From Bacteroidota bacterium (GTDB lineage: Bacteria > Bacteroidota > Bacteroidia > Chitinophagales > Saprospiraceae), in NCBI GenBank assembly GCA_003045895.1, contig PZPC01000002.1:1-64000 (forward strand): a DNA stretch of 64,000 nt. The letters are read 5' to 3'. The notes beneath the pieces are model-generated. The model had not been told where the DNA came from, ran no database searches, and was given only the letters and a program-made list of their open reading frames with translations. Position 1 is the first letter of the stretch. Each line of letters opens with the position of its first letter. A program made the position numbers and the translations under genes. Of this stretch, positions 5,130 through 47,168 are shown one piece after another.

Positions 5130-6287
5130 ATGCGTTTGCTCCTATTCATTGCCCTGTTCGTTTTGGTGATCACTGGCTGCGGCCGGTGGATCGTGGGTGG
5201 TAATCCGGCCAATACCCCTGCCAATAATTACGACATTTTCTACCGGTCCGTCCAGGAAAACTATGCGTTCTTCGCCGAAAAAGAGGTTAACTGGGACTCA
5301 CTCGACCGCCACTACCGCCCCCTGGTCACCGACAGCCTGGGCAACGACTCGCTGTACAGCATCCTGTCGACCATGCTCTTCGCGCTGCGCGACGGCCACG
5401 TCAACCTGTACGTCAACAACGATCGTTCGCGCAATGCCGACTGGTACCTGGATTTTCCGGCCAACTTCAACGAAGGCGTGCTGCGCCGCCAATACCTCGG
5501 CAAAAACTACCAGGCGTCTGGCCCGCTGGCCAATACCTGGCTGGATTCGGTGGGTTACATGTACTACGGATCGTTTAGCAGTGCCATCGCCAAGGGCAAC
5601 CTGGACTACGTGCTCAACCGGTTTGCCAGCAGCAAAGGGCTGATTATCGACGTGCGCGACAACGGCGGCGGATCGCTGGGCAATGTGTTTAAGCTGATGG
5701 AGCGCCTCGTTCCGGAGAAGACCTTCGTCGGTACCATCGACCAAAAAAATGGCCCCGAGGCGGGCAGTTTTTCGGAGCGCGACAGCTTTTTCATCACCCC
5801 CCTGGTCAACTACAACCACAGCACCGAAGGGTTGAGCCCCCGCAAAAAGAAAAAAGCCGAAGCAGCCAAACGGCAGCGCGAAGAATTCCTCGAAAATCCC
5901 CCCCCGGTGCGGAAAGGCGGCTGGGCGGTGGCCGATTCTACGGGCATGATGCTGCACAAACCCATTGTGGTGCTCATCAACCGGCACAGCTATTCGGCTA
6001 CCAATTTCTTCGCGGCCTTCATGTCTACCCTGCCCAACGTGACCCTCATTGGCGACCGCAGCGGTGGTGGGGGTGGCATTCCGGTTTCGTACGAGTTGCC
6101 CAACGGCTGGAAGATCCGCTTTTCGGCTACCCGCACCTACTTGCCCAACGGCCAGGATATTGAGAATGGCATCGAGCCGGATATTTACCAGGCTACCGGC
6201 CCCGCCGATGAGCTGCAGGGCGTAGACGCCATCATTGAAAGAGCCAAAGCCTACATCCTGGAACAGGCGAACACAGAAAAACAGTAG
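5130..6287 (+). CDS. S41 family peptidase (C-terminal processing protease-like), lipoprotein signal
   Basis: LFVLVITGCGRW lipobox; GLIIDVRDNGGGSL; HSYSATNFFAA; IENGIEPDI. Confidence 0.85.
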   Translation: MRLLLFIALFVLVITGCGRWIVGGNPANTPANNYDIFYRSVQENYAFFAEKEVNWDSLDRHYRPLVTDSLGNDSLYSILSTMLFALRDGHVNLYVNNDRSRNADWYLDFPANFNEGVLRRQYLGKNYQASGPLANTWLDSVGYMYYGSFSSAIAKGNLDYVLNRFASSKGLIIDVRDNGGGSLGNVFKLMERLVPEKTFVGTIDQKNGPEAGSFSERDSFFITPLVNYNHSTEGLSPRKKKKAEAAKRQREEFLENPPPVRKGGWAVADSTGMMLHKPIVVLINRHSYSATNFFAAFMSTLPNVTLIGDRSGGGGGIPVSYELPNGWKIRFSATRTYLPNGQDIENGIEPDIYQATGPADELQGVDAIIERAKAYILEQANTEKQ

Positions 6288-6300
6288 CTTTGCCACCCAC

Positions 6301-7056
6301 ATGCGATACTTCATTGAACTGGCCTACAATGGCACCGCCTACTACGGCTGGCAACGGCAACCCCGGCAAACCAGCGTTCAGGAAACCCTGGAGCAGGCGA
6401 TAGCCACCATTTTGCGGGCCCCGGAACTGGAAATTACCGGCTGTGGCCGCACGGACACGGGCGTGCACGCCAGCCAGTACTTTGCCCATTTCGACTTCGA
6501 AGGTTCCTTTCCGCCCGCCTTCCTGGAGCGGCTCAATAAATTTCTGCCCAAAGACATTGCCATTCGGCGGATCTTCCCCGTGGCGCCCGAACAACACGCC
6601 CGCTTCGATGCCCACTACCGGGCCTATGCCTACCACCTCAGCTGGCAAAAAAATCCTTTCCAGCAAGATACCCTGTTGCTTTTTCCGCGCGCCCGGCATT
6701 TTGCGACCGACCTGATGCAGGAGGCCGCCCAACTGCTGCTGGCCTACGAGGAGTTTTTACCCTTCTGCAAGACGGGTTCCGACGCCAAAACCATGCGCTG
6801 CCAACTGCACCGCTCGGAATGGGAATTCCGCGCCGACGAATGGGTGTACCACATCGCCGCCAACCGCTTTCTGCGGGGCATGGTACGCCTGGCCGTGGGC
6901 ATGTGCCTGTCGGTAGGCGAGGGGAAGGTGACCCTGGACCAGGTGCGGCACGCCATGGACACCCAAACCCGCCTGGATAAAAGCTGGAGCGTGGCACCCA
7001 ACGGCTTGTTCCTGACGGAGGTGCGCTACGCGTTTATGGCGGAGCCGGAGGGGTGA
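6301..7056 (+). CDS. truA: tRNA pseudouridine(38-40) synthase TruA
   Basis: MRYFIELAYNGTAYYGWQRQP, GCGRTDTGVHASQ, RFLRGMVRLAVG. Confidence 0.95.
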   Translation: MRYFIELAYNGTAYYGWQRQPRQTSVQETLEQAIATILRAPELEITGCGRTDTGVHASQYFAHFDFEGSFPPAFLERLNKFLPKDIAIRRIFPVAPEQHARFDAHYRAYAYHLSWQKNPFQQDTLLLFPRARHFATDLMQEAAQLLLAYEEFLPFCKTGSDAKTMRCQLHRSEWEFRADEWVYHIAANRFLRGMVRLAVGMCLSVGEGKVTLDQVRHAMDTQTRLDKSWSVAPNGLFLTEVRYAFMAEPEG

Positions 7057-7151
7057 TTCGCGGACGGAACGTTTTTTGCCTGCGGCGCTTGCACAGGCCA
7101 TTCTATTTGGTTAAATTACGGAACCAATCGGCGTTTGAGCCCCGCAAAACT

Positions 7152-7922
7152 ATGACGGTCACCACCGAGAAATACTATCCAGAATATGTAGAAACTGTGG
7201 GCCACCAAATCGATACCTGGTTTGACCAGTACGATTTTTCCACACCCAAAATTGACCTGGGCTATAACACCAAGGCGTCGGCCGTCTATTCTTCCAATAT
7301 CGAGGGCAATAGCATCGACTTGAATGCTTTTATGAACTCGATTACGGCGCAACAGAACTTTAAACCACGAAAAGAAATCCAGGAAATTGAAGACCTGGTA
7401 CGAGCTTACGAATTTGCCCAGGCTCATCCCTTAACGGAACAAAATTTCGGGAAGGCGCACCGAATGCTGACTGCCACCCTGCTCGTAAAGGGCAAACGGG
7501 GTGAGTACCGAAATGACCCCATGGGGGTATTTGACGATACCGGATTGGTGTATTTGGCCATTGAACCACAGTTTGTAGCAGAAAAAATGGCGGCTTTTTT
7601 TAAGGATATTCAGCAATTAATTGCTGCCGATTTATCCATTTCCCAGGCCTTTTACCATGCGTCGCTGATCCATCTGCAACTCGCGCATATTCATCCGTTT
7701 TGGGACGGAAATGGAAGAACTGCCCGCCTATTGGAAAAATGGTTTTTAGCCACAAAAATAAATGGCCGCGCCTGGCTCTTGCAATCGGAAAAGTACTACA
7801 AAGAGCATTTGCCCGCCTATTACCGGAACATCAATCTGGGCGTCAATTATTATGAACTTAATTACGACAAATGCTTGCCCTTTCTCTTGATGCTGGCGGA
7901 GAGTTTAGGCCCTTCGCATTAA
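7152..7922 (+). CDS. Fic/DOC family protein (predicted AMP transferase) with N-terminal inhibitory motif
   Basis: HPFWDGNGRTARLLE (Fic motif HPFx[D/E]GNGRxxR) and SSNIEG inhibitory motif. Confidence 0.92.
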   Translation: MTVTTEKYYPEYVETVGHQIDTWFDQYDFSTPKIDLGYNTKASAVYSSNIEGNSIDLNAFMNSITAQQNFKPRKEIQEIEDLVRAYEFAQAHPLTEQNFGKAHRMLTATLLVKGKRGEYRNDPMGVFDDTGLVYLAIEPQFVAEKMAAFFKDIQQLIAADLSISQAFYHASLIHLQLAHIHPFWDGNGRTARLLEKWFLATKINGRAWLLQSEKYYKEHLPAYYRNINLGVNYYELNYDKCLPFLLMLAESLGPSH

Positions 7923-9139
7923 TTCACCACCACTCTAAACGTCCACCCTTGCTGGCCGATGCGCAGGTGTAAGCTGTAGAAGCCTGGGGTAAAGTGCCCC
8001 GGCAGCGCAATACGATCACCGACAAAATCACCCCCGATTATCCGCTGGCCCAAATTGTTGTACACTTCGTAGTACCCCCCGGTAGTGGGTAAGTTGTTGA
8101 GCAGGACGAAGGCATCCTGCCTCGTCCATAGCGTCGGGAAAATGCTGCCAGGTGGGGAATTTTGCAGGTCTTCAATGGCTACGGGCTGGCAGTTTTCGAC
8201 CGCCACTTCCCGGTGGATACGGAGAAAATCGAGGACAACAGTGCTTAATGCTTCGCCAAAAGCCTGCCGATTGGTTGCGTTGTCTCTGACGCCCGTCAAA
8301 TTACATTCTATTTGCAGGCCGTTCACCGTATTTCCGGTGGTGTAGCTGGTGTGCCGTGCGGTCGTATAGCCTCCACTAAAATAGCTGTCGGCAGCAGCAG
8401 GAGCGGGAATTTGGGCACTGGGCACCGCCGGGAAGCTGGCCTCGCCCAGGAGGGTTCCCAGTGCCTGCGGGCCCCGCAAGAGTGCCGCGTGTGTATAATT
8501 GTTGGCGTTGTCAGCTACCAGGTTTTGGATGGCGCTCACCGCTATTAAGGGGGGCGTATTGAGCTCCTGATCCGAAAGCCGCAACTCGTCGTCGTACAGC
8601 AGGTAGCCCAGTTCCAGCCGCTGAATGGGGTGGCCGTGGCCGTGGAGGTCAATAAAAAGGATATTGCCTGCGTATTCCTGTTGGGCACTGGCCTGGGCCT
8701 GTTCAATAAAATTGTGGTATTCCGTCCAGGCTAACGCAGCTGCCGGGTTGCCGCAGGCCCCGTCGGCGAGGTTGCGGTTGCAGTCGAGTTTGGTGCGGCG
8801 CAAGTTGCAGTAAATGAGGTGTGGATGGCAGCCCGTTTGTGCGAAAAAAGCCGCGTCGATTTGCTGCGCCAACTCGATGGTATTCAAGTCGGTAACCGTA
8901 ACGGCATCATTGCAGGTGCGGTTGGGCAGCGCGGCCGGACTTACAGCACCTCCGTGTGGCACCGCTATTACTACGGGTAAGGTTCCCTGGTGGTATTCGA
9001 CGTAACTGTTGGTGCCGTAGACGACCTGGGCGCCGCCACTTTGCCAAATGACCAATAAGAGTAAAAGGGACAAGTATTTCAGACCTGGTTTTCGTCCTTT
9101 TATGCTTTGTTGAATTACCGCGTAGATATGCATGTCCAT
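7919..9139 (-). CDS. T9SS-sorted protein with N-formylglutamate amidohydrolase-like domain
   Basis: VVIAVPHGG...NRNLADGACG...ILFIDLHGHGH...; C-terminus 'YYEVYNNLGQRIIGGDF...PGFYSLHLRIGQQGWTFRVVVN' is T9SS-like. Confidence 0.7.
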   Translation of the reverse strand: MDMHIYAVIQQSIKGRKPGLKYLSLLLLLVIWQSGGAQVVYGTNSYVEYHQGTLPVVIAVPHGGAVSPAALPNRTCNDAVTVTDLNTIELAQQIDAAFFAQTGCHPHLIYCNLRRTKLDCNRNLADGACGNPAAALAWTEYHNFIEQAQASAQQEYAGNILFIDLHGHGHPIQRLELGYLLYDDELRLSDQELNTPPLIAVSAIQNLVADNANNYTHAALLRGPQALGTLLGEASFPAVPSAQIPAPAAADSYFSGGYTTARHTSYTTGNTVNGLQIECNLTGVRDNATNRQAFGEALSTVVLDFLRIHREVAVENCQPVAIEDLQNSPPGSIFPTLWTRQDAFVLLNNLPTTGGYYEVYNNLGQRIIGGDFVGDRIALPGHFTPGFYSLHLRIGQQGWTFRVVVN

Positions 9140-9254
9140 CCTAATTTAGAAACCTCCTCTAGGGAGGCTCCCAAAGTTAGCATCTCGACGAAAAAAAGAA
9201 AGAAATTTATTTTTGCGATTTTTCAAAATTCACAAACCAGGTAACGCTACCAAT

Positions 9255-10190
9255 TTACTGCTGCGCCACCGACGCCAGATACTGGTACACCGCCCTAATT
9301 TCGCTAGAATCCAGCAGGTAGGGGTGCATGGGTTCCTGAAAAGCGGGTTTATTGGGACGAAGGCCGTATTTGACGGCCGTCACGAATTCGTCCACCGTCC
9401 AGTCGCCGATGCTCGTGCCCGGTGCCGGCAATAAATTGGGCACCTCGATATCGTATTTGAGCATCGGAAACACGAAACCACCCACCAGGTAGCCGGGGGT
9501 AGCGGTGGGTTCGACAGGGTTGGCGGCCTTAATATCGGCCGAATGGCAATAGTAGCACAGGTTAACGGCATTGACCTGGTAGGCACCGTAGGCGATGCTG
9601 TCGCTCAGTGCGGGCCTGGTGGGGTACTCATCCTGATAGGGTACAGGCCGGAACACCAACTTGCGCAGCGCCCGCTCCAGAAAAGAGGGTTGGTGCAGCG
9701 GATGATTGGCCTCCGCTGCCGCTACCATCGGATGGTCGGAGCGCAAAAAGGCAATGATAGCGTAGATGTCTTCGTCTGCCGCCAGGGGCCAGGTGGGCAT
9801 GACGGCAATGGCCTGGGCGTTGTTTTTCTTAACGCCCGTGCGCAGCAAACGGTCCAATTCGCCGTCGGTATAACCCGCTATGGCCGCATTGGCATCCTGG
9901 GTAATATTGCTCGTATAGATGGCGCCGAAATCCTTGTTCGCCGAGCGGTCGTCAAACAGTCGCCCCGTCAGTTGGGTACTGTTCTCCCCGTGGTGGCAAC
10001 TGTAACAGTTGTTCTGCACCAGAACCCGCCCCTGCAGAACCCGCGCCGGGGTAACTTCTACGGTGAGCTCGGGTACGGCGACCTCGGCGTAGGTCGGGGC
10101 AGGGCTGAAATAAATGTAGGTAGCTAAAAGGGCAAGTGCCAGGAGGACGGCGAGAACGGCCAGTCCCAGGATACGAAGGATCTTTTTCAT
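9255..10190 (-). CDS. Diheme c-type cytochrome
   Basis: Two CxxCH motifs (CYSCHH, CYYCHS), N-terminal membrane/signal segment. Confidence 0.9.
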   Translation of the reverse strand: MKKILRILGLAVLAVLLALALLATYIYFSPAPTYAEVAVPELTVEVTPARVLQGRVLVQNNCYSCHHGENSTQLTGRLFDDRSANKDFGAIYTSNITQDANAAIAGYTDGELDRLLRTGVKKNNAQAIAVMPTWPLAADEDIYAIIAFLRSDHPMVAAAEANHPLHQPSFLERALRKLVFRPVPYQDEYPTRPALSDSIAYGAYQVNAVNLCYYCHSADIKAANPVEPTATPGYLVGGFVFPMLKYDIEVPNLLPAPGTSIGDWTVDEFVTAVKYGLRPNKPAFQEPMHPYLLDSSEIRAVYQYLASVAQQ

Positions 10191-10422
10191 CGCTTTGGTG
10201 TGTTGTATATGGGTGTGTAAGGTGGTAAGGCGCGGATAATCTATCTCAAATATAATATTTTAGCGTATCGTTTCTCTAATTTCCAAATAATTAAATCTTT
10301 ATACATCTACTTAAAGTGATCTTGTTCGCTCCTTGCGGGGTCGTATGTCTTTCCTGATAATTCATACCAGCTGAAAATTTACTCTTGATCAAGACACACG
10401 ACCCATTTCAGGTTAGCTGATT

Positions 10423-11229
10423 CTACCCCTTCACCAAGGCCTCTTTCTCCGGCGTCTGCTCGTTCAGGCGCCAGTCGTAATCGATAAATTCGATGGGTTG
10501 GGAAGTTTTCACCTGCTTTTTGGCGTAGCGATTGATGAGTTCGTAGCGATCCTGGTATTTGTCTTTAAAATCCCCCCAGTACCAATCCAGCAGTTTGGAC
10601 AGGCGGATGGTTTCGCCCCCGATCTCATTGCGGAAGGGTTCGTTGAGGAACTCGCTGGCGGCCTCGTCCAGCTGGGTATCCAGCTTATCGCCGGTGAAGG
10701 CAAAATTTTGCAACTTCGGGCAAGACATACTCGCGCAAACCAGGCTGAAGTGGATGCGCGGATCGTCGAATTCCTTGCGGAGAATGCCGTGTTCGATGTT
10801 GTTGAGGTCGAATTCCTTACCGGCAATGGTGAAGAATTTGACGTCCCAAACGGTATTTACAAAAGGAATCCCGTCCTTGATGTCCTTGATGCTGTTGACC
10901 GGGTAATAGTCCAGGATCAGCTTCACCGTGAAGGCATTGTAGGCGTTGATCCAGTAGGCCAGCTGTTCGGTTTTCGACCAGGTTTTTTCGTTCGGGGCAT
11001 TGTTGCTCAGCAGGCTGAGGTAGTCTTTGAGCTGGTTGCTGTCCTGGGCAAAGCCCTGGTAATCGACCAGTCCGTGGTCGTCAACGTGCTTGCGCAAGAG
11101 GCTGTCCCAGGCGGCGTGGCTGATGGGTTGTGCCGAAGACGTCACCTTGGGTGCCGTGCAACCACTAACTGCCAGCAGCAAGCCCAGGGCCGCGGCGTAG
11201 AAAAGAATACTCGATTTTCCGTTTAACAT
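10423..11229 (-). CDS. DUF547 domain-containing lipoprotein
   Basis: AYWINAYNAFTVKLILDYYPVNSIKDI; HFSLVCASMSCPKL; lipobox LLAVSGC. Confidence 0.9.
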   Translation of the reverse strand: MLNGKSSILFYAAALGLLLAVSGCTAPKVTSSAQPISHAAWDSLLRKHVDDHGLVDYQGFAQDSNQLKDYLSLLSNNAPNEKTWSKTEQLAYWINAYNAFTVKLILDYYPVNSIKDIKDGIPFVNTVWDVKFFTIAGKEFDLNNIEHGILRKEFDDPRIHFSLVCASMSCPKLQNFAFTGDKLDTQLDEAASEFLNEPFRNEIGGETIRLSKLLDWYWGDFKDKYQDRYELINRYAKKQVKTSQPIEFIDYDWRLNEQTPEKEALVKG

Positions 11230-11297
11230 GAGGTAGTTTTTTTGAATGAACGATATTTGCGGGCCAGACGTTTGTTTTTAAACTAAAATAGCCAATT

Positions 11298-12119
11298 ATG
11301 TGTCCGCCACCGGACTCCCCTACCAGTATTACCACTTTTTCCCTGCCGGTAAGCAAGGGTACCATCCTGGTTCACACCTACGGCAGCGGCCCCAAGTTGC
11401 TCATTGCCCTCCACGGCTACGACTACGACGGGCAGGTATTTGCCGACTGGGCCGCACCGTTAGGTTCCCGCTATACCATCTGTGCGCCAGACCTGCCGTT
11501 TCACGGTGGCAGCGAATGGTGGGCACCGGAATTTAAGCCAGCGGATTGGGTAGAGATCATCAGCGGCATTGCCGCCCAACAAGGCAAGACAAGGTATTCC
11601 CTCGTGGGGCACAGCCTCGGCGGGCGCATCATTGTCTGTACGGCAGCAATTTTGAGCGAGCAGATTGAGCAAGCGGTTTTACTCGCCCCGGCGGGTATTG
11701 GTGCCTTCGACCAGGTGGCGCCCCTGGTGGTTCAGCAGCTTGCCGAACGGGCCACGGGCTGGACCCGGGGATTGCAGTTTCTGGTGACCCTGGGCGCCCG
11801 GCTGGGGTGGGTAAGTACCTTTCATCGGCGCTACGCCGAAGCGCAACTCTATCCCCCCGACAAGCGCTACCGCCTGTTTCGGACGTACAACTCGATCCGG
11901 AATTTCCGGACGACGGCTGCGCCTACGCTCCAATTTTGGCAAGCCACTACCCTACCTACCCTCATCGTGTTGGGCAGCAACGACCGTTTCGTGCCCAACC
12001 CCAAGATCAGGGCCTACTTTGCGGCGAATCCGGCCTGCACGGTGGTGGAAATAGTGGGCACCCACGACTTAGTCAACGCCACTACAGCCCAACTGCTGAA
12101 AGGCCGCCTGCCTAACTAG
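11298..12119 (+). CDS. Alpha/beta hydrolase
   Basis: LIALHGYDYDG, GHSLGGRI nucleophile elbow, LIVLGSNDRFVP, GTHDLVN. Confidence 0.9.
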   Translation: MCPPPDSPTSITTFSLPVSKGTILVHTYGSGPKLLIALHGYDYDGQVFADWAAPLGSRYTICAPDLPFHGGSEWWAPEFKPADWVEIISGIAAQQGKTRYSLVGHSLGGRIIVCTAAILSEQIEQAVLLAPAGIGAFDQVAPLVVQQLAERATGWTRGLQFLVTLGARLGWVSTFHRRYAEAQLYPPDKRYRLFRTYNSIRNFRTTAAPTLQFWQATTLPTLIVLGSNDRFVPNPKIRAYFAANPACTVVEIVGTHDLVNATTAQLLKGRLPN

Positions 12120-12178
12120 CCTTTTTCCGGCGCCCGCAACAACTCGAAGACGGTAATTTCTGGAAACATGCCTACCCG
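12057..12178. repeat. Left ~122-bp direct repeat of the 12-17 kb island (3' end of alpha/beta hydrolase plus remnant of metallophosphoesterase 3' end)
   Basis: Near-identical to 16855..16975 (ggcacccacgacttagtcaacgccactac[a/g]gcccaactgctgaaag...ccggcgcccgcaacaactcgaagacggtaatttctggaaacatgcctacccg). Confidence 0.93.
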
Positions 12179-12215
12179 TATTTCTGGAAACATGCCTACC
12201 CGGCCAGAATAATTT

Positions 12216-13544
12216 TCATTCCCCCTTCTTCACCGGCGTAAACAAATATACCAGGCCAACACTATTTTCCTTTTCGTAGAAATGGGTGTAAGATTGGTAC
12301 TGACTAACCACCACCGCCTCCCCATTGGTAGCAACCGTTGAGCCAAAAAAACGAGATTGAGCCCCTTGTGGTGTGCGTAGCGTATCTGCTCCTATTTCAT
12401 AATGGCGTTTTGCTGTATGGAAAAGGTAACTAAGCCCATCTTTTCCTCCACGCGGACTCCCAATTACCATTAAATCCTTAACCAAGGCAATAGAGGAACC
12501 AAAATCGCCATCCCCGTTAATTGTTTTTTCGGTTACCCAATCCCCACTTCTGGATGGTTTAAATACATAAACAGACCCCCTAGCATAAGAATGATGTTTT
12601 TTTGGGGGTGCGCCAATAGCCAAAACACCTTCGTTAACTGCTACGGCTAGTCCAAATTGATCTCCAGCCTGTCCGTCACTCGCGGCCAATTCCGCTTGTA
12701 ATTCCCACCCATTCGAGGAAGGGTTACGAGTAAAAACGTATGCTGTTCCTGTATTGCGCTGAAGCGAATCATTTCCTTTGTTTTTAGGGGTAGCGCCAGG
12801 TGCACCGATTAGGAGTAAATTGTTCTCCATGGCCAGAGAGGAGCCAAAGGAGCCGTGCCGCTGAAGCACCGGTGGCTCAATGATTTGTTTTATTTCCCAA
12901 TTGTCCAACCCATCGAATTGGTAAATAAACACTTGACCTGCACCAAGAATGGTGTCTCCCTGACTACTGACACAGTCTTTGTATGGGGCACTTACGGCAA
13001 TGAATGAACCAGCAATGGCCACACCGTGCCCAAAACATTGCCAAGGGGTTGCCGCCGCCGTGGGGTCTTCCAGTTTACTGGTTTCTTTCCATGCACCGGT
13101 AGCATCCAAGTGAAAAACATAGGCGCCACCCGCGCCAATAATTTTTTGCTCCTGGGCATTGGGGATGGTTTTTAATTTAGCACCAATAACCGCCCATTCA
13201 TTAGCCAAAGCAACCGCACAACCGAAAAAATTCAGCGGACCTTTGTCCGAAGCTGTTATTTGTTGTGTTTCTTGCCAATGCCCGGCATGGTCGTTTTTTA
13301 ATATATAAGTCACGCCTGTTGCCCAGGCGTTGGTATCCACACCAATATGTCCGTTTTCTTCCCAAGGCACACCTACAAAAGCGTAGCTGTCACTGATCGC
13401 AATTGCGGGAGCCATAGCCTTATCAGCCAGAGAATCATCCGCATGCACAAAGGGTTGCGCATACCATTGTACCATCGGCGCTTGGCATCCGTACAGCAGG
13501 GTTAGTGCGAGGGTTAAGAGCGTGAACGTAGACTTGTTTGCCAT
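12216..13544 (-). CDS. FG-GAP-repeat-like beta-propeller lipoprotein
   Basis: Lipobox LLYGC; repeated 'FGxxVAxxxxxxxIGAP' blades (FGCAVALANEWAVIGAK, FGSSLAMENNLLLIGAPGA, FGLAVAVNEGVLAIGAPP, FGSSIALVKDLMVIGSP). Confidence 0.75.
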   Translation of the reverse strand: MANKSTFTLLTLALTLLYGCQAPMVQWYAQPFVHADDSLADKAMAPAIAISDSYAFVGVPWEENGHIGVDTNAWATGVTYILKNDHAGHWQETQQITASDKGPLNFFGCAVALANEWAVIGAKLKTIPNAQEQKIIGAGGAYVFHLDATGAWKETSKLEDPTAAATPWQCFGHGVAIAGSFIAVSAPYKDCVSSQGDTILGAGQVFIYQFDGLDNWEIKQIIEPPVLQRHGSFGSSLAMENNLLLIGAPGATPKNKGNDSLQRNTGTAYVFTRNPSSNGWELQAELAASDGQAGDQFGLAVAVNEGVLAIGAPPKKHHSYARGSVYVFKPSRSGDWVTEKTINGDGDFGSSIALVKDLMVIGSPRGGKDGLSYLFHTAKRHYEIGADTLRTPQGAQSRFFGSTVATNGEAVVVSQYQSYTHFYEKENSVGLVYLFTPVKKGE

Positions 13545-13576
13545 TTACGACTTAGATTTTAGAGCGATACACCTGA

Positions 13577-14065
13577 CTAGTCAAACACTTTATCCACCAG
13601 AAAATACAGTTTGACAATAAGCACCGAGAAGGTGAAATAATAAGTCAACATTCCTAATAGCAACGTACCGAGCATGTAACGGGTTTCTGGTTGGGAAAAA
13701 AGTTCTATTATAAATGTTAACAAATTGAATGTTCCACTTGAATTAAGCCACGTGATCAAAAAAAACGCCACGTATATTATCGGAATAAAAATCTTTGCCA
13801 TTTTCAGGAACAGCATCCTAATGGAAAGATGTCCTATGCTAGCCTTATTCACTAGCACAAACAATACATTCATTATCACCACGAACACAAAAATAACAGC
13901 CATAAAAAAGTAGGCCCCTAGCGCTTTGCCCGTGAAAATGTGTAACAACCTTACCGGAGCATATATAATTATATAGGCCACAGTAGAAAGGACAATGCTG
14001 AAACAAGTCAGCAGTAAGTACTGTAGTAGGGTTCGGCGGATAATTTTGTTTTTTATATTATTCAC
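13577..14065 (-). CDS. Multi-TM membrane protein (candidate immunity/partner protein)
   Basis: Several hydrophobic segments; start overlaps the stop region of the upstream ORF by 8 bp. Confidence 0.6.
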   Translation of the reverse strand: MNNIKNKIIRRTLLQYLLLTCFSIVLSTVAYIIIYAPVRLLHIFTGKALGAYFFMAVIFVFVVIMNVLFVLVNKASIGHLSIRMLFLKMAKIFIPIIYVAFFLITWLNSSGTFNLLTFIIELFSQPETRYMLGTLLLGMLTYYFTFSVLIVKLYFLVDKVFD

Positions 14066-16049
14066 AAGGTATAGCGGTTATTGGGGCATTTGATCGCAGG
14101 GGGTTCATAACTTCATTCCAGTTGGGGCGAATTGTAATTGGTGTATTTTGAACAGCAATTCCACCTCTCCTGTTAATGAAAGATGCTACCTTTTGTGTTA
14201 AATTATTCCAAGTCGCATCTGTTATAGCGTAAAATATTTTAGACATGTCATTTCCTGTCATCCAAGCGCCAGGTTTCAATAATGAAGATAATTTGCCTCT
14301 ATCAGCAGCCTTTGTGTAAAATTGGTACTCGTCTGCTAACGTTTCAATTCCAAATTGTCTATTCCCTGAAACAGGATGAGAACCATCATAAGGGAAAGTA
14401 AATTGGCCTGTAGTAACAGTACTAAAGACCCAACAGCATTCGTTATCAAAGCTACTACAAATTACAGTAGCATCATCTGTTATTCCCCAAAAGTCTGTCA
14501 CACTTTCTGGACTAACATCAATGTTCATAACTGTAGTTACTGGGTTAGGTGATGCCCATAAAACGTAGTCTGTTTGAAAAAAATTCCAATCCCAAACAAC
14601 ACTATAATCGGGAAAACTATTCAATTCAACGGTTGTTCCTCCATTCGCGAAAACAGGAAAATTGAGTCTTATAAAATCATATAATTCTTGTTTGGACCTT
14701 ATACCATCCCCATTCAGGTCTGGCAATTGCGTTATTGAGACAGAATGTCTATCAAGGTTAACTGTCTTCGAATTTCCTGCCAGGATATCTTGATTTTCCC
14801 ATCCTAATCCGTCAATTCTATTCTGACAGGAGTTCGGAATTGCAAAAGAGGCAAGATCGGACCAATAATCAATACCAAGTTCTTCCTGACAATCCTCAAC
14901 AAGTGCATCAGGATTTTCCTCTAACAACTCATACAATTCCTCAAAGCGTTCGAATTTATAATCGTCATCGACTTGCTTAAGTTTAAGAAAAGTAATAATA
15001 TCCTCAGTTGGGTCTTCATTAGTAAGTATAGAATAATGCTCCTCCCAAAACAAAATAATCTGATCAATCAATTCGGGAGTTACATTAGTCTGATGAGGAA
15101 TAGTTTCCAGCAGCACGTGGACAATCTGTAGAATTTGTTCCTTTTCTACCCCCTCCTTGTTGTCTAAAAATCGTTGGATCGGCTCAATGAGTTCGGGGTT
15201 GACCAAGAGCGTATTCACTTCATCGCGGGTCAGCTCAAGGTCGGGGGTTCTAATAATCAGCGACGCCAGGTCAGTGCCATTACAGCCGGTATCATTTTCG
15301 ACAATCTGCTGAAAGGCCGCTTCGTTTTGAAACAGCAGATCTCCCCAGGTCGTTATTACTGCTCGAAAGGGAACCCCCGTAAGACAGGTGTTTGAATAGG
15401 TCATCCAACTGCCACGAAAACCAGCATCAGGATGCTCCAATGAAGGGTTGCCACCGGTGTCATACACGTCTCCCAGACCTTCACAATCCAGCAATCGTTG
15501 CTGGCTTAGATCACTATCCGTTATCAGGCCATAACCAATCAGGGTACTGACGCAGTCCCAGTATTCATTTTTAGCAGCGCTATTGGTACTGATAGCTTCG
15601 GTAGGGTCTCCGACATGGGCAACTAAAGGGCAAATTAGATCAAACCCCATGACATCGGGTCTACTACAACGATGGTTGCAAATTGGACCATTGCGCCCTC
15701 CTGCATGCCCTACACAGCCGCACTCAATATAGGGCACAAGTGTACATCCATGTGATAAATCACCACCCCAGCTGCCCCAACTACCACCTCCATTTATTGG
15801 CCCCGGAGTTCCTCCTGTTGGATCAGAACCAACGGGGAGGCCACTACCGCCACCTCCACTACTCGTAACACCCCAAAAAACCAATTGCCAGCAATCATCA
15901 ATACTGCTCGTTCTGCTATTGGTTTCTTTCTTTTCGCCAAAAGCATCGGTCGTTATACCTTTTATCTGACCGGCGAATCCTGATAAATCAATCCTTCCCT
16001 GGTAGTAGTCACTTAGAAACTGCGGATCAAATTCGAATTCAAAGACGAT
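14058..16049 (-). pseudogene. 5'-truncated large secreted protein gene fragment (C-terminal portion; candidate effector/toxin)
   Basis: 608-aa ORF (14058..15884) begins at a TTG, but the frame stays open with coding-like sequence upstream to 16049 (IVFEFEFDPQFLSDYYQGRIDLSGFAGQIKGITTDAFGEKKETNSRTSSIDDCWQ) without an ATG. Confidence 0.55.
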
Positions 16050-16422
16050 TTAGCAATAGGTTAGAAACAGAATTACCGTTTTCGGTTCAGATGATTAGCT
16101 CGAACACTCCTTGGATTAAGGCGTTTCCTTTCTCTAATGATTTGAGGATGTGATCTTGTTATTTGACCCTCACTTTAGTCGGTAATCGACTAGTTGGCAT
16201 AAGTGACATTGTAGAAAAAAAACAGGTGAGAACTGGACGGTTGGAGCGTGTCGGTTGTTTTCATCAGAGCAAGAAGTAAGTGCGTTAATAATTCTTTGGC
16301 AATTTACTGGTTTATTTTGGTATCGGGCATCATCAATATATTCTAATTTATACCCTATGCGTATAATTTAGAACCATTTCTTTTTTTTGAAAAATTAACC
16401 ATCAACTCATCAATCATCGCTT

Positions 16423-16794
16423 GTGGGAATCAGAGTAGGATCAAAAATCAAAAAGATCAGGGAGTTAAGAGATTTTACCCAATTGTACATGGCTGATTCT
16501 ATAGGTATTTCGCAATCTTATTATGCCCGAATTGAAAATAACACGGTTGATCTTTCCTTCAGTAAGCTGGAAAAAATCGCAGAGATACTGGCCATTGATC
16601 CCTTGCAACTATTAAGCTTTGACGGCACGCAATATTTTCAGTCGGTATCACACAGCCAGGTAGGCTCTGGGCAATACGTTGACCAACGACCCATTACCGC
16701 AGATCAACTGGGTAAGTATCAGCAAGAATTGGAAAAATTGCAAGGAGAAGTCAATTTTCTGCGCAAACTGATTGAACAGCATTTTTTAAAATAG
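16423..16794 (+). CDS. XRE-family helix-turn-helix transcriptional regulator
   Basis: GSKIKKIRELRDFTQLYMADSIGISQSYYARIENNTVDLSFSKLEKIAEIL (HTH_3). Confidence 0.85.
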   Translation: MGIRVGSKIKKIRELRDFTQLYMADSIGISQSYYARIENNTVDLSFSKLEKIAEILAIDPLQLLSFDGTQYFQSVSHSQVGSGQYVDQRPITADQLGKYQQELEKLQGEVNFLRKLIEQHFLK

Positions 16795-16854
16795 GCTCCC
16801 CCTGCTTTTAATTATAGGCGTTCTCCTTTCCCTAATATGGCTACCCAAATGCCC

Positions 16855-16975
16855 GGCACCCACGACTTAGTCAACGCCACTACGGCCCAACTGCTGAAAG
16901 ACTGCCTGCCTAACTAGTAGTTCCCGGCGCCCGCAACAACTCGAAGACGGTAATTTCTGGAAACATGCCTACCCG
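16855..16975. repeat. Right ~121-bp direct repeat of the island (remnant of hydrolase 3' end plus intact metallophosphoesterase 3' end)
   Basis: See 12057..12178. Confidence 0.93.
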
Positions 16976-18160
16976 GCCGGGAAAGCCTAACCAACCGAAA
17001 CCGCGGTTAACGTAGAGGTATTGCTGCGCCACTTCGTAAAGACCCGACCAGCGTGGATAAAAGTACTTGATCGGGCTCCACTGGAAACCGAACATGCTGA
17101 CGCCCATCTGCATGCCGTGGGTATGGCCCGCCAGGGTGAGGTGGATGTGCTGGGCGTGCGGCAGCACCTGGAGGTCCCAGTGGGTGGGGTCGTGGGAGAG
17201 GAGGATTTTAAACGCCTCCGGCGGCACGTCGTGGAGGGCTGCATTCAGGTCGCCATACTGCGGAAACGGCGGACGCCCCCAGTTTTCTACCCCCACCAGC
17301 TGGATGGAATCTCCGCCTTTGGTGATCGCGACGCTGCGGTTGTTGAGCAGTTCGAAGCCACAGGCCGCGTAGTTGGCCTTTACCTGGGCGGTATTTTCCC
17401 GCTGGACGGCCGCGCTGGGCCAGGCGTGGGTATGGCCATAGTCGTGGTTGCCCATGACGGCGTACTGGCCGGAGGGCGCCCGCAGGATGTCGTGAAAGAG
17501 TTGGGTGTAGGGCAAAATTTCTTCGGCCCGCCCGTTGACCAGGTCGCCGGTGAAGACGATCAGGTCCGCGTGCTGGGCCGCTACCAGCTCCAGGCCTTCT
17601 TTTACCTTCGCTATATTATCGAAGCTGCCGGCGTGCACGTCCGATATTTGGGCTACCCGAAAACCGTGGAAAGCGGGGGGCAGATCGGGAAACTGCAGCG
17701 GCACCCGGTGCACCTGGTAGTGGTATTTACCTCGGGTAATGCCGTACAGAAACGACCCAAAAGATGCTACGGCCACCACCAACGCGGCTTGCTGGATCAA
17801 CTGCCGCCCGCCGGGCGAAAGGGGTTGCAAGCTCCCCGGCAAGAGATACCCCACCAGTGCGCGGGCACCCAGTCCGATGTCCGTCAACACCAGGAACAGG
17901 GCCAGCAACACTTCGGTCATGAAGACCCCCACCACCAGGCCGATGACCAGGTTGCGTAGGCCGACCGGCTGGCGACCAAAAAAAGCCAGGTACACCAACG
18001 CCACGGGAATATAGAAGAAACCACCGGTAAGCACCCACTGCACCGCCGTACGGGCCCAGCCGGGCGGAAATGCCAGGTAGAGCTCCTGATAGGACAGGTA
18101 GACCAACGCCAGAAAGTAAGACACGATTACTCCAATAAATACCATTTGGCGAAAAGCCAT
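16910..18160 (-). CDS. Membrane-anchored metallophosphoesterase
   Basis: ISDVHAGSFDN, FTGDLVNG, MGNHDYGH, LAGHTHGMQ. Confidence 0.9.
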   Translation of the reverse strand: MAFRQMVFIGVIVSYFLALVYLSYQELYLAFPPGWARTAVQWVLTGGFFYIPVALVYLAFFGRQPVGLRNLVIGLVVGVFMTEVLLALFLVLTDIGLGARALVGYLLPGSLQPLSPGGRQLIQQAALVVAVASFGSFLYGITRGKYHYQVHRVPLQFPDLPPAFHGFRVAQISDVHAGSFDNIAKVKEGLELVAAQHADLIVFTGDLVNGRAEEILPYTQLFHDILRAPSGQYAVMGNHDYGHTHAWPSAAVQRENTAQVKANYAACGFELLNNRSVAITKGGDSIQLVGVENWGRPPFPQYGDLNAALHDVPPEAFKILLSHDPTHWDLQVLPHAQHIHLTLAGHTHGMQMGVSMFGFQWSPIKYFYPRWSGLYEVAQQYLYVNRGFGWLGFPGRVGMFPEITVFELLRAPGTTS

Positions 18161-29515: not shown

Positions 29516-29762
29516 ATCCCCCTGCCAGGCCCACCCCGCCAAACGACCCCCATTCTTCAATATGCCATTTCAGACAAACAATATTCCGCTTAAATGCGCT
29601 ATCTAAGTTATTAAAAATGCAATAGTCGAGTATTAAGCAAATAATTATCTGAGGCGCCGATTTTCATTTGTGCTTTTTATTATGCTTTTTGTATAACTTA
29701 CCCGTCTTAAAACAACAACACCCCACCAACACACTTTATTTTATCCATTAAATTAGCAGATT

Positions 29763-32357
29763 ATGAAAATAGTTAACTATCTACTTCTGCTATTCCTATG
29801 TCCCGTATTTTTATTTGGGCAAAGAATAGTAAGTGACCGGGTACAAAAAGCTGAAACCAAGCTACCCAAAGTCAATTATTCCCTCGTAAATGCGAGCAGC
29901 CAAAGCCTGAAAGACGCGGGAATACCTGAAAATGTGCTTTCCGAAGGAATACTGGTCAACCTGAACCAGGCTAGTATCCGGACATTGCTCAACACCCGAC
30001 CTGAATTGCTGGAACTTCGCTTTCCCCTGCCGGGCCTCGGAGAAACCAGTGTCACACTTATTCCTAACAAAGTACTTACAAGTGATTTCATCCTGCGTAC
30101 CAGCGACGGCCGGACACTTGATTACCAACCCGGGTTGTATTACTACGGCACCGTGACCAACGACCCCAGTACCCTGGTAGCCATCAGTATCTTTGACCAG
30201 GAAATTCACGGTATGATCAGCACCGACCGCGGTAATTTTGTCATCGGAAAACTGGAGGAACCAGGTAGTGAGCAACACCTTATTTATAACGATCGTGCGT
30301 ACAAGCAATCCTTCGATCTGGACTGTGGCACCGAAGACGACGGCGTGGGCTACAAACCCAGCCAGCTGGAATTTGACGCCACCAAAGCAGTTGGCGACTG
30401 TATCCGGGTATACGTAGAAATCGACGATGATGTGGTTACCAACAAAGGTGGTGCAACGGGTGCCACCAACTACATTACCGGCCTGTTCAACCAGACCATC
30501 ACCCTCTACGCCAACGAGAGCCTGAACATGGTGGTATCTGAAATCAAAGCCTGGACCACCCCGGCGCCCTATTCCGGTACCTCGTCCAGTGCCATGCTAA
30601 GCAGCTACCAGGCCAATACGGGCACCTTCAATGGCGACCTCTCTCACCTGGTTTCTTACCAGGCCAGTGGAGGTATCGCCGCCGGTTTTGCAGGAATATG
30701 TGCGACCAACCCCGACAACTCCAAGTGTTTTAGCAGCATTGATGCTTCTTACAGCAACGTACCTACCTATTCTTTCTCGGTGATGGTGGTCACTCACGAG
30801 ATGGGTCACCTCATCGGATCGCGCCACACGCACGCTTGTGTATGGAATGGCAACAATACCGCCATCGACGGTTGCGCGGGTGGTGTGGAAGGCGGTTGCG
30901 CCCTGCCCGGTAGCCCTTCCGGTGGTGGTACGATCATGAGCTATTGCCACCTTACTACGGGTATCAATTTCAACCTGGGCTTTGGCGCTCAGCCCGGAGC
31001 GGTAATCCGCAATACCGTGGCCAATGCGAGCTGCCTGGCACCTTGTGGCGGCGGCGGTGGCCCAACGTGTACGGATGGCGTGCAAAACGGTACCGAAACG
31101 GGCGTAGATTGTGGCGGCTCCAGCTGCCCCGCTTGCCCGACGGCTTGTAACGACAACCCAGTTACCATCTCGATAACTTTTGACAATTACCCCGAAGAAA
31201 CAAGTTGGACCGTCACCAACGCCAGTGGGTCGGTAGTTGCTTCCGGTGGCACTTACGGTGCACAACCGGATGGTTCGACCCTGGTTCAGAACCTGTGCCT
31301 GGTCAACGGCTGTTACAATTTCAACATCTTCGATGCGTATGGCGACGGGATGTGTTGCACTTACGGAAACGGCAGTTATACCGTTTCGGCGGGTGGCAGC
31401 ACCGTAGCCAGTGGTGGATCATTCACCACCAGCCAGAGCACGAATTTCTGCGTGGGGGCAGCTGCACCTACCTGTACGGATGGTATCCAGAACGGTGACG
31501 AAACCGGTGTCGACTGTGGCGGTTCTACCTGCCCTTCTTGTCCTACGGGTGGTAGCCAGGTGCTGCTGGGATCGTATTTCGAGACCGGCTTTGATGGCTG
31601 GTCAGATGGGGGCGCCGATTGTGCGCGCTACGCAGGGACGTACTCCTACGAAGGTACTTACTCCATCCAGTTGCGCGACAACTCCGGAACAGCTTCCGCG
31701 ATGACCTCGGGCAGCTTTAATGTGACCAGTTTCAACCAACTGGAAATCAAATTCTACTTCTATGCCAACAGCATGGAAACCGGCGAAGATTTCTGGGTGC
31801 GTTACTACAATGGTTCCACCTGGCAAACGGTGGCCACCTACGCCCGGGGCACCAGCTTCAACAACAATACCTTCTACACCGCTACGGTAACGCTGAATAC
31901 CAGCCAGGTGGCTTTCCCCAGCAATGCGCAATTCCGCTTCCAGTGTGATGCCAGTGCCGATAACGACCAAGTCTATATTGACCAGGTGACCATCACCGGT
32001 ATTTCAGGTGCCCTGATCGAAGCAGGTCCTATTGCGACAAGCATTACCCTCCTCGGCGACGCAACCGCAACCGAGTCGGAAATTTCCGTCTCTCCGGCAG
32101 TGTTCAACCAGGGGGTAGACGTGGTCCCAGGTCAGGTACTGGTCTTCCCGAATCCGGTAGCTGATGTACTTAACGTTCGCGCCGACGGCGAAATGCAGTC
32201 GATCCGCCTGCTCTCCGCTACGGGCCAGGTGCTGCGCCAGATTCCAATGGCCAGCGAACAGACGACCCTCGATATTGCTGATCTGAACCCCGGCATGTAT
32301 TACCTCCTCATCGAAGTGAATGGCGGGTTGATACCTCAACGGTTTGTGAAACAGTAA
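29763..32357 (+). CDS. Secreted metzincin-type zinc metalloprotease (M12B/reprolysin-like) with T9SS sorting domain
   Basis: VTHEMGHLIGSRHTHAC (HExxHxxGxxH); Cys motifs CTDGVQNGTETGVDCGGSSCPACP; C-term VFPNPVADVLNVRADG...GMYYLLIEVNGGLIPQRFVKQ. Confidence 0.92.
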   Translation: MKIVNYLLLLFLCPVFLFGQRIVSDRVQKAETKLPKVNYSLVNASSQSLKDAGIPENVLSEGILVNLNQASIRTLLNTRPELLELRFPLPGLGETSVTLIPNKVLTSDFILRTSDGRTLDYQPGLYYYGTVTNDPSTLVAISIFDQEIHGMISTDRGNFVIGKLEEPGSEQHLIYNDRAYKQSFDLDCGTEDDGVGYKPSQLEFDATKAVGDCIRVYVEIDDDVVTNKGGATGATNYITGLFNQTITLYANESLNMVVSEIKAWTTPAPYSGTSSSAMLSSYQANTGTFNGDLSHLVSYQASGGIAAGFAGICATNPDNSKCFSSIDASYSNVPTYSFSVMVVTHEMGHLIGSRHTHACVWNGNNTAIDGCAGGVEGGCALPGSPSGGGTIMSYCHLTTGINFNLGFGAQPGAVIRNTVANASCLAPCGGGGGPTCTDGVQNGTETGVDCGGSSCPACPTACNDNPVTISITFDNYPEETSWTVTNASGSVVASGGTYGAQPDGSTLVQNLCLVNGCYNFNIFDAYGDGMCCTYGNGSYTVSAGGSTVASGGSFTTSQSTNFCVGAAAPTCTDGIQNGDETGVDCGGSTCPSCPTGGSQVLLGSYFETGFDGWSDGGADCARYAGTYSYEGTYSIQLRDNSGTASAMTSGSFNVTSFNQLEIKFYFYANSMETGEDFWVRYYNGSTWQTVATYARGTSFNNNTFYTATVTLNTSQVAFPSNAQFRFQCDASADNDQVYIDQVTITGISGALIEAGPIATSITLLGDATATESEISVSPAVFNQGVDVVPGQVLVFPNPVADVLNVRADGEMQSIRLLSATGQVLRQIPMASEQTTLDIADLNPGMYYLLIEVNGGLIPQRFVKQ

Positions 32358-32379
32358 AAGAAGATCGTTTAAAAAAAAT

Positions 32380-32418
32380 AGAGGGCTTCCCGAATGATTC
32401 GAGAAGCCCTCTGCTTTT
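32380..32418. terminator. Intrinsic terminator between convergent protease and dienelactone hydrolase genes
   Basis: AGAGGGCTTC ... GAAGCCCTCT followed by a short T-rich tract. Confidence 0.8.
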
Positions 32419-33549: not shown

Positions 33550-33687
33550 TTTAGTTAAAAAAAACAAATAATAAATCAAAAAAATCTTTTTTTCGAAATC
33601 GTTTAAAATCTTTGTATATCTTAACGCAATTAAGCAAGCAAATACTCCAGCCACACTTCTTTTTTGTAATTAATAAACTAGCAGATT

Positions 33688-36348: not shown

Positions 36349-36370
36349 GTATTTTTTAAATAAAAATTGA

Positions 36371-36405
36371 AGAGGGCCTCCCGGATTATCCGGGGGGCCC
36401 TTTGT
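36371..36405. terminator. Intrinsic terminator downstream of second protease
   Basis: agagggcctcccgg-atta-tccggggggccctttgtttt hairpin plus T-rich tail. Confidence 0.8.
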
Positions 36406-36504
36406 TTTGCTAAAGTTTAAAAACAGGTGAATCCCTTGTGTAGACCTCCGAGGTTAATCCTGTTTAAGAGTATTTAGGAGGCAACTTTGCTTTCTCCTTC
36501 AAGT

Positions 36505-36736: not shown

Positions 36737-37054
36737 ATGATTGTAAAACAAATGCTTATGAGTGCGGTAGAAATACGTACTGAAATTGACCAGCTACTTA
36801 ACAAAATCCAAAGCAATAATGAGTCATTTTTAAAAGTGGTACACTCCATGTTAACGACTTATGTACAGGAACAAGATCCTGTTATTGGTTACAACGCGGC
36901 GGGGAAACCAATGTATGCGAGTGTGGCTAAGGAAGAATTCAAAGCTCGTCACGAAGCAGTTGATCGTGGAGAATTTATCACTCTGGAAGAATTAAAAAAA
37001 GAATCTGAGACATGGCTTCAGAAAACCCCGCTGTGCAATAGGCAATCGCTTTGA
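36737..37054 (+). CDS. Antitoxin-like protein of a RelE/ParE-type TA system (3' end altered)
   Basis: VIGYNAAGKPMYASVAKEEFKARHEAVDRGEFITLEELKKESETWLQ; C-terminus differs from duplicated fragment at 39099. Confidence 0.6.
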   Translation: MIVKQMLMSAVEIRTEIDQLLNKIQSNNESFLKVVHSMLTTYVQEQDPVIGYNAAGKPMYASVAKEEFKARHEAVDRGEFITLEELKKESETWLQKTPLCNRQSL

Positions 37055-38928: not shown

Positions 38929-39098
38929 TAGGCATTGAAAACGTTTGATGACCCCTGCTCGTGAGGGTCTGTGACCTGCAACGCAATGTCTGCAAGTTTT
39001 GCAACTTGGGTATACTACAAAACCCCGCTGCACCTAGTCTGTCCTAGCCGCTATTCGTAAATTGCATCTACAAATCCGTACAGATCAGCAGTTTACTA

Positions 39099-39306
39099 GA
39101 ATTTATCTCACTGGAAGAATTAAAAAAAGAATCTGAGACATGGCTTCAGACAACCCCACCTATTTTATCGTTGTGTGTTGGTATTAAAAGGTAAATACCG
39201 AATCATTTATACTATTGTTGAAACCAAGACAGAAGTCCGGGTGATCGACATCAATCGCAGTAGCCGAGGACCGGAATATATGGAACAAGTCAAGAAAAGG
39301 CGTTAA
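39099..39306 (+). pseudogene. TA locus remnant: antitoxin C-terminal fragment plus internally deleted RelE/ParE-family toxin fragment
   Basis: gaatttatctcactggaagaattaaaaaaagaatctgagacatggcttcaga matches 36971..37022; then KGKYRIIYTIVETKTEVRVIDINRSSRGPEYMEQVKKRR* in another frame. Confidence 0.7.
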
Positions 39307-40246: not shown

Positions 40247-40380
40247 CTTTCAAAGATAAAAGAAATTTGGTTTACAGAGGGTGTCTCTACAGGCGAAGAA
40301 GGGAAGGATTCGAAGTCGGAAGTAAAGGCCGTGCAAAGGTGGGAAAGTGTAAACACTCTCGTCGGACTATTGACGGTCAA

Positions 40381-40432
40381 AAGTCTTCCTTTGGAGGAGG
40401 TGGCACGCCCGGGCGTGCCGGAGGAGGAAAGA
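40381..40432. repeat. Interspersed palindromic repeat, copy 1
   Basis: aagtcttcctttggaggaggtggcacgcccgggcgtgccggaggaggaaaga; contains perfect 18-bp palindrome GGCACGCCCGGGCGTGCC. Confidence 0.85.
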
Positions 40433-47035: not shown

Positions 47036-47115
47036 TGACCTTGCTGCATCTTTGGACAGATCGACTTTCCCGACTGTGCTGGCGGGTGATGGTAACCAAC
47101 AGTTGAAGACGGCCT

Positions 47116-47168
47116 AAAGTCCTCCTTTGGAGGAGGTGGCACGCCCGGGCGTGCCGGAGGAGGAAAGA
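47116..47168. repeat. Interspersed palindromic repeat, copy 2
   Basis: aaagtcctcctttggaggaggtggcacgcccgggcgtgccggaggaggaaaga, same as 40381..40432 with one change. Confidence 0.88.

What the first reader, a model, noticed from the sequence alone, without database searches (positions are those of the whole stretch)
12057..16975. ~4.7-kb island bounded by ~122-bp direct repeats that each carry both flanking gene ends
The repeats at 12057-12178 and 16855-16975 are near-identical. Each contains the 3' end of the alpha/beta hydrolase (GTHDLVNATTAQLLK..LPN*) joined to the 3' end of the convergent metallophosphoesterase (RVGMFPEITVFELLRAP). The hydrolase end is native only on the left and the phosphoesterase end only on the right, so each repeat pairs one functional end with one relic. 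The two genes were presumably adjacent and convergent. The segment between them was then gained with duplication of the whole junction. The interior is visibly AT-richer than its flanks. No transposase or integrase is visible. Plausible routes are homologous integration of a circle carrying the junction, or a duplication/replacement between related loci; both are inference.
Basis: partly seen in the sequence, partly recalled or inferred. Interest (0 to 1): 0.7.

Follow-up and report, generated by a model that had tools for sequence, protein, structure and literature searches.

The report
Toxin-type cassette inserted between overlapping genes
A 4.65-kb foreign gene cassette that looks like a bacterial toxin plus its protective membrane protein sits between two convergent host genes, inside a 122-bp duplication of their shared ends that keeps both genes whole; the same genome has similar local duplications beside several toxin-antitoxin genes, a possible clue to how such genes insert without a transposase.

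Summary
Two direct repeats, 12057-12178 (plus a 24-bp tandem copy to 12205) and 16855-16978, are 93% identical over 122 bp, occur nowhere else in the genome and end abruptly. Each joins the hydrolase 3' end to the phosphoesterase 3' end; one end per copy is native. Three same-genus genomes have the two genes adjacent and convergent without the island. In one their ends overlap, as in the right copy here.

The 4.65-kb insert (43% GC against 58%) is a cassette seen elsewhere: a secreted, polymorphic-toxin-like protein (here 5'-truncated), a small membrane protein (presumed immunity) and an FG-GAP protein, plus an XRE regulator. No mobility gene was found.

The cassette lacks such repeats in other genomes, so they are a target duplication. 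In about 37% of this genome I found comparable local duplications beside other toxin-antitoxin inserts. Pfam-defined TA loci are enriched for them (5 of 8 in fetched sequence, 5 of 14 overall, against 19 of 300 random windows).

Most likely: one-step illegitimate insertion with local duplication, kept because only a duplication spares both overlapping genes. Circle integration and attachment sites fit less well. The mechanism is inferred; the duplication, empty sites and enrichment are shown.

The parts
11298..12119 (+). alpha/beta hydrolase gene, native 3' end in the left repeat
   Evidence: ORF; Pfam Abhydrolase; orthologues in G001-G003
12057..12178 (+). left copy of the 122-bp duplication: native hydrolase end + phosphoesterase relic
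12156..12205 (+). 24-bp tandem duplication inside the left copy; homology to the right copy runs to 12205
   Evidence: (D3)
12206..16854 (.). inserted segment, 4649 bp, 42.8% GC
   Evidence: absent from this locus in G001, G002, G003
12216..13544 (-). FG-GAP repeat protein, N-terminus lipoprotein-like; third gene of the cassette
   Evidence: FG-GAP_2 E=9e-47; FG-GAP proteins of 480 and 481 aa in the same position after CT and membrane genes in G217
13577..14065 (-). 162-aa polytopic membrane protein, presumed immunity protein
   Evidence: overlaps the end of the upstream gene; 53% homologue in the G003 toxin/orphan-gene array; a membrane-type ORF follows most homologues of the toxin-like gene
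14058..16049 (-). polymorphic-toxin-like gene, open frame 663 aa without signal peptide or start; roughly 120-170 N-terminal residues missing compared with homologues
   Evidence: (stop-to-stop frame); C-terminal part 289-608 conserved in Bacteroidota, Caballeronia, Phaeobacter; START/Bet v 1-like model
16423..16794 (+). XRE-type HTH regulator
   Evidence: HTH_3 E=7e-14
16855..16978 (+). right copy of the duplication: hydrolase relic + native phosphoesterase end
16910..18160 (-). metallophosphoesterase gene, native 3' end in the right repeat; its stop overlaps the hydrolase-relic stop (16910-16917)
   Evidence: Metallophos E=3e-14

Best explanation
A horizontally acquired toxin/immunity-type gene cassette was inserted into the junction of two convergent host genes whose coding ends overlapped. 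The insertion was illegitimate: no integrase, no fixed attachment site. In the same event it copied about 122 bp of the target, so the insert ended up between two copies of the junction. Mechanistically this is most like repair or replication with a template switch, in which synthesis leaves the host template after the junction, copies the incoming DNA, then returns upstream of where it left. Because the two genes overlap, an insertion without duplication would cut one of them; one that duplicates the whole junction leaves both intact, so selection kept this type. The cassette's toxin-like gene is now 5'-truncated and probably not exported; the membrane protein may persist as an orphan immunity gene. 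Shown: duplication, empty sites, foreign cassette, recurrence beside TA genes of this genome. Inferred: template switching, single-step origin, immunity role.
For: Two-copy, abruptly ended duplication of both gene ends. Empty or differently filled junctions in the genus: G001 with overlapping gene ends, G002 with about 120 bp, G003 with a ~0.45-kb SnoaL-like gene. Cassette order toxin-like gene, membrane gene, FG-GAP gene at two unrelated loci of G217, one with only a C-terminal fragment of the toxin-like gene. The cassette has no such flanking repeats elsewhere, so the repeats belong to the target. Other inserts with local duplications in the same genome: C82 82 bp (DUF433+DUF5615), C9 148 bp (Fic/Doc), C76 139 bp (PemK-like), C31:69132 201 bp (DUF433), C22 175 bp (acyltransferase gene end). 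Pfam-selected TA loci: 5 of 8 in fetched sequence against 19 of 300 random 6-kb windows, p=9e-5; 5 of 14 in all, p=2e-3. A C16 TA locus carries a 281-bp copy of a gene end whose native copy lies 2.3 kb away beyond another gene, which a plain staggered-cut duplication would not give. No Ku gene in the genome, so end joining by Ku/LigD is unlikely (control positive).
Against: No empty-site strain of the same species is available; same-genus relatives share only 53-56% hydrolase identity, so the exact pre-insertion sequence is not seen. The donor sequence is unknown, so junction microhomology cannot be scored. A two-step origin (tandem duplication, then insertion exactly between the copies) is not formally excluded. 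Only about 37% of the genome was read for repeats. Six TA loci outside that part show none, though they were tested only in about 3-kb windows.
Confidence: 0.55

Rival explanations
1. Two steps: the 122-bp junction was first duplicated in tandem by replication slippage, which freed a non-essential interval between the overlapping genes, and the cassette was later inserted between the copies.
For: A 24-bp tandem duplication inside the left copy shows that local slippage happens here. GGC is shared by the two breakpoints, compatible with a slippage junction.
Against: A later insertion at a random point would leave a remnant of the neighbouring copy beside one repeat; none is seen. Non-dispersed two-copy tandem duplications without an insert are nearly absent in 2.06 Mb (one candidate, C13:58153), although unstable tandem copies may be lost quickly.
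Confidence: 0.2
2. Homology-facilitated illegitimate recombination or single-crossover integration: incoming DNA from a close relative carried the cassette next to this same junction and recombined through it, leaving the homologous stretch on both sides.
For: Known process in naturally transformable bacteria, and proposed for effector-immunity modules (PMC5361080; PMC3240628). Copies differ by about 5%, so a donor from a related strain is conceivable.
Against: It needs a donor that already had the cassette beside this host-specific junction, which moves the problem to the donor. The cassette's other homes lack the junction. The fading of only the non-functional ends fits ageing in place.
Confidence: 0.15
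3. Site-specific integration: the repeats are attachment sites of a cis-mobilizable element moved by an integrase in trans, with the gene ends rebuilt by the element as at tRNA genes.
For: Duplicated gene ends bounding an island are the classic attL/attR picture (general knowledge; for the anatomy); no recombinase need be inside a cis-mobilizable element.
Against: No recombinase in the island by Pfam, NCBIfam, PADLOC or PHROGs. The duplicated sequence differs at every locus in this genome, so no common site exists. The same cassette elsewhere is not bounded by this or any long direct repeat.
Confidence: 0.07
4. Ordinary gene neighbourhood change: the relic ends are leftovers of an old larger duplication of the hydrolase-phosphoesterase region, later eroded and filled.
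For: Relics are diverged by a few percent, so some time has passed.
Against: Erosion would not leave exactly matching, sharply bounded blocks of both gene ends on both sides with no trace of the rest of either gene.
Confidence: 0.03

Closest known systems
Minimal mobile element (Saunders and Snyder 2002; cited in PMC2649163)
   Same: Different whole-gene cassettes, or none, lie between two conserved genes in related genomes, with no mobility gene (overlapping genes in G001, ~120 bp in G002, SnoaL-like gene in G003, toxin cassette here).
   Different: Minimal mobile elements are exchanged by homologous recombination in the flanking genes; a duplicated junction is not part of that definition as I know it. 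Exchange between strains was not testable here.
Polymorphic toxin / orphan toxin-immunity cassettes (for example T9SS-linked classes in Bacteroidetes, PMC7073777; Vibrio effector-immunity arrays, PMC5361080)
   Same: Conserved C-terminal domain on different N-terminal regions, a small gene directly downstream, a truncated orphan module and an array with an orphan homologue in G003.
   Different: Toxicity and immunity untested; the C-terminal domain matches no Pfam, NCBIfam or PADLOC family; the third gene (FG-GAP) is not a standard part.
Homology-facilitated illegitimate recombination
   Same: Foreign DNA joined without a site-specific recombinase; local duplications are a possible outcome.
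   Different: No homologous anchor is known in the cassette; the duplication is the target's own sequence on both sides.
Small variable segments flanked by direct repeats (PMC2884548)
   Same: Strain-specific small inserts, a minority flanked by direct repeats, attributed to illegitimate recombination.
   Different: There 66-94% of repeats were under 30 bp; here 39-281 bp, and associated with toxin-type cargo.
Chromosomal type II TA insertions (review PMC7167474)
   Same: TA modules inserted between conserved genes; the review states that how they integrate is unelucidated.
   Different: Here several such inserts carry a physical trace, a long locus-specific local duplication.

Membership tests
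Polymorphic toxin-immunity cassette | C-terminal domain shared by proteins with different N-terminal parts | tested here: met
   Residues 289-608 found in lipoprotein-type proteins of Bacteroidota, a C92-peptidase-like protein in Caballeronia and a C70-peptidase protein in Phaeobacter
Polymorphic toxin-immunity cassette | Small gene directly downstream of the toxin gene | tested here: met
   Membrane-type ORFs of 135-199 aa follow directly in G217 (two loci), G204, Mesonia, Polaribacter, REEB487 and G101; not evident at the Caballeronia and Phaeobacter loci
Polymorphic toxin-immunity cassette | Export signal on the toxin protein | tested here: not met
   Homologues start with lipoprotein-type signal peptides; the island gene lacks that part. 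Not filed as an intact member, only as a truncated relative
Polymorphic toxin-immunity cassette | Toxicity relieved by the downstream protein | not testable with these tools
   Needs an expression assay
Cis-mobilizable or integrative element | Integrase gene, or att sites shared with an integrase-bearing relative | tested here: not met
   No recombinase in the island; no other copy of the repeat in the genome; no such repeats round the cassette elsewhere
Transposon | Transposase, terminal inverted repeats, short fixed target duplication | tested here: not met
   No transposase among island genes; insert ends unlike each other and unlike those of other inserts; duplication 122 bp here, other lengths elsewhere
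Minimal mobile element | Alternative cassettes between the same two conserved genes | tested here: met
   G000, G001, G002, G003 compared
Minimal mobile element | Exchange between strains by homologous recombination in the flanking genes | not testable with these tools
   No conspecific strains held
Ku/LigD end-joining insertion | Ku present | tested here: not met
   PF02735 absent from G000, control positive in B. subtilis

The most novel reading that the evidence does not exclude
This lineage has a transposase-less insertion pathway that brings in toxin-antitoxin and toxin-immunity cassettes and in the same step copies 40-280 bp of nearby host sequence, so that flanking genes are rebuilt. 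The duplications are its footprint and would answer how such cassettes enter chromosomes.
Probability: 0.22. Interest if true: 0.75.

Novelty: new variant of a known kind. Interest (0 to 1): 0.5.

Why it matters
Small toxin-antitoxin and toxin-immunity cassettes are very common in chromosomes, yet a 2020 review states that how they integrate is unelucidated (PMC7167474). Long, locus-specific local duplications beside several of them in one genome are a physical trace of the event. They predict sequences that can be checked in any genome collection (two-copy direct repeats straddling TA genes; single copy in empty strains). They also suggest a simple rule: at overlapping gene ends, only insertions that duplicate the overlap survive. 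The island itself shows an uncharacterised toxin-like domain, predicted to have a START/Bet v 1-like fold and shared between phyla.

Tried and rejected
Ku-dependent end joining: no Ku gene. RNA element or Rfam family in the region: none. Phage origin: only the XRE regulator matches PHROGs, as general repressors. Dispersed repeat: only two copies in the genome. Degraded continuation of the repeats outside their ends: none beyond chance. Cassette-borne repeats: other homes of the cassette have none straddling it. Repeat pairs dismissed as paralogous or internal gene repeats, unrelated to inserts: C16:3975, C45:70587, L164, and probably L174; C50 and L179 left unclassified. The third 55-bp copy in L117 and the copy in L179 lie at 100-N gaps with exact 55-bp overlaps and look like assembly joins. 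No toxin fold by PDB sequence search. The acyltransferase gene of C22 has no orthologue in the genus, so its empty site could not be tested.

Full report
Observation. The repeats are present as described. Ungapped blocks of 63 nt (95%) and 55 nt (98%) lie 4798 and 4797 bp apart. BLAST joins them at 93.4% over 122 bp. A third block of 26 nt (12180-12205 = 16953-16978) shows that the left copy has an extra 24-bp tandem duplication, which keeps the phosphoesterase relic in frame. The homology ends sharply on both inner sides. A whole-genome search finds only these two places. The copies differ by substitutions and indels, so the pair is not an assembly duplicate.

Ancestral state. Three same-genus genomes carry hydrolase and phosphoesterase side by side and convergent. 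In G001 the aligned ends overlap (338 against 345 in L006). In G002 about 120 bp separate them, and in G003 a ~0.45-kb SnoaL-like gene lies between (the SnoaL name is my reading of the translation, not a database match). None has the island at this place. In the right copy of our genome the phosphoesterase stop (16910-16912) overlaps the relic hydrolase stop (16915-16917), so the ancestral ends overlapped by about 8 nt. An insertion without duplication would have damaged one gene. That the duplication is why the event was tolerated is inference.

Cargo. GC is 42.8% inside against 57.7% outside. The genes are an FG-GAP_2 protein, a 162-aa membrane protein, a 663-aa open frame without a start, and an XRE regulator. 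In G217 (a Saprospiraceae MAG, JARGNR010000113, by matching contig length) the order toxin-like gene, membrane gene, FG-GAP gene occurs at two loci, one with only a C-terminal fragment. Homologues of the C-terminal 320 residues occur in Mesonia, Polaribacter, several Saprospiraceae, Caballeronia and Phaeobacter. A membrane-type ORF follows at most of the Bacteroidota loci. In G003 the membrane protein has a 53% homologue inside an array of small genes behind a related large protein, on another contig than the hydrolase locus. This is the pattern of polymorphic toxins and orphan immunity genes; function is not shown. Homologues begin with lipoprotein-type signals; the island gene lacks roughly 120-170 residues including that signal. 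AlphaFold gives pTM 0.73; Foldseek matches START/Bet v 1-like proteins (best E=1.5e-5, TM by target 0.59) with modest coverage.

Recurrence. I read 2.06 Mb of the 5.57-Mb genome. Two-copy repeats of 50-700 bp within 15 kb are 14 direct, 1 inverted, and none farther apart on the same contig. After setting aside paralogous genes, the rest surround or adjoin small inserts: C82 (82 bp; DUF433+DUF5615), C9 (148 bp; Fic/Doc and a cut DUF433), C76 (139 bp; PemK-like), C31:69132 (201 bp; DUF433), C22 (175 bp; end of a WS/DGAT-SCP2 gene, 78-aa unknown ORF), C20 (57 bp; NTP_transf_2/HEPN) and window 36970/39098 (60 bp; antitoxin-like ORF). As a test not selected on repeats I listed all DUF433, ParE and PIN loci (14). 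Five of the eight in fetched sequence have a non-dispersed local direct repeat, against 19 of 300 random 6-kb windows (p=9e-5; 5 of 14 in all, p=2e-3). At C69 two TA pairs alternate with three copies of a ~250-bp repeat, R-TA-R-TA-R (98% and 88%). At C16 a 281-bp copy of a gene end lies beside a TA pair, but its native copy is 2.3 kb away with another gene between. That last case, and the varied lengths, fit template switching better than a staggered cut. No Ku gene is present.

What is not shown. No sister strain, no donor sequence, no excision data. The control is internal to one genome. One-step origin rests on the absence of tandem remnants and of empty tandem duplications. The cassette's other homes have no straddling repeats, so the duplication is a property of the target, not of the cassette.

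Comparison with the literature. Homology-facilitated illegitimate recombination is proposed for effector-immunity modules (PMC5361080). Small variable segments flanked by repeats are known, but mostly with repeats under 30 bp (PMC2884548). The integration route of TA modules is described as unelucidated (PMC7167474). I found no paper in the held library describing long local duplications as a regular companion of TA inserts; subscription literature was not searched.

Noticed in passing
window 36970-37029 and 39098-39157: 60-bp direct repeat (95%) made of the end of an antitoxin-like ORF; it encloses about 2.07 kb with a 461-aa ORF, and the right copy is followed by what looks like the end of a RelE-type toxin gene.
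   Followed up: partly
window 29688-32417 and 33611-36408: Two large neighbouring paralogous genes, 72-77% identical in DNA; the second encodes an 886-aa protein with a T9SS-like tail.
   Followed up: no
window 40372-40432 and 47108-47168: 61-bp repeat that is dispersed (10 copies in 1.07 Mb of the genome), likely an intergenic repeat family.
   Followed up: no
L072-L081 (alignment A2): C-terminal toxin-like domain with invariant P-x-SGNRQ-x-G motif, START/Bet v 1-like model, no Pfam or NCBIfam match, found in Bacteroidota and Proteobacteria.
   Followed up: partly
L163 (G000:C69) 13851-16237: R-TA-R-TA-R array: two ParE-type toxin-antitoxin pairs alternate with three copies of a ~250-bp repeat.
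   Followed up: partly
G000:C16 16006-16286 and 18337-18617 (L097): 281-bp copy of the 3' end of a gene (MsrA-like by my reading) beside a ParE TA pair, 2.3 kb from the native copy.
   Followed up: partly
L061 (G003:C13) 6094-11678: Toxin-like lipoprotein gene followed by a series of small unrelated genes, one homologous to the island's membrane protein; looks like an orphan immunity array. A 48-nt intergenic repeat lies on both sides (4372, 13558).
   Followed up: partly
L078 6671-8654: Toxin C-terminal domain ORF of 194 aa starts right after a transposase-like ORF and is followed by a 142-aa membrane ORF.
   Followed up: no
L117 (G000:C22) 14091-14300; L179 268-495: Exact 55-bp overlaps on both sides of 100-N gaps, which look like assembly joins rather than biology.
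   Followed up: partly
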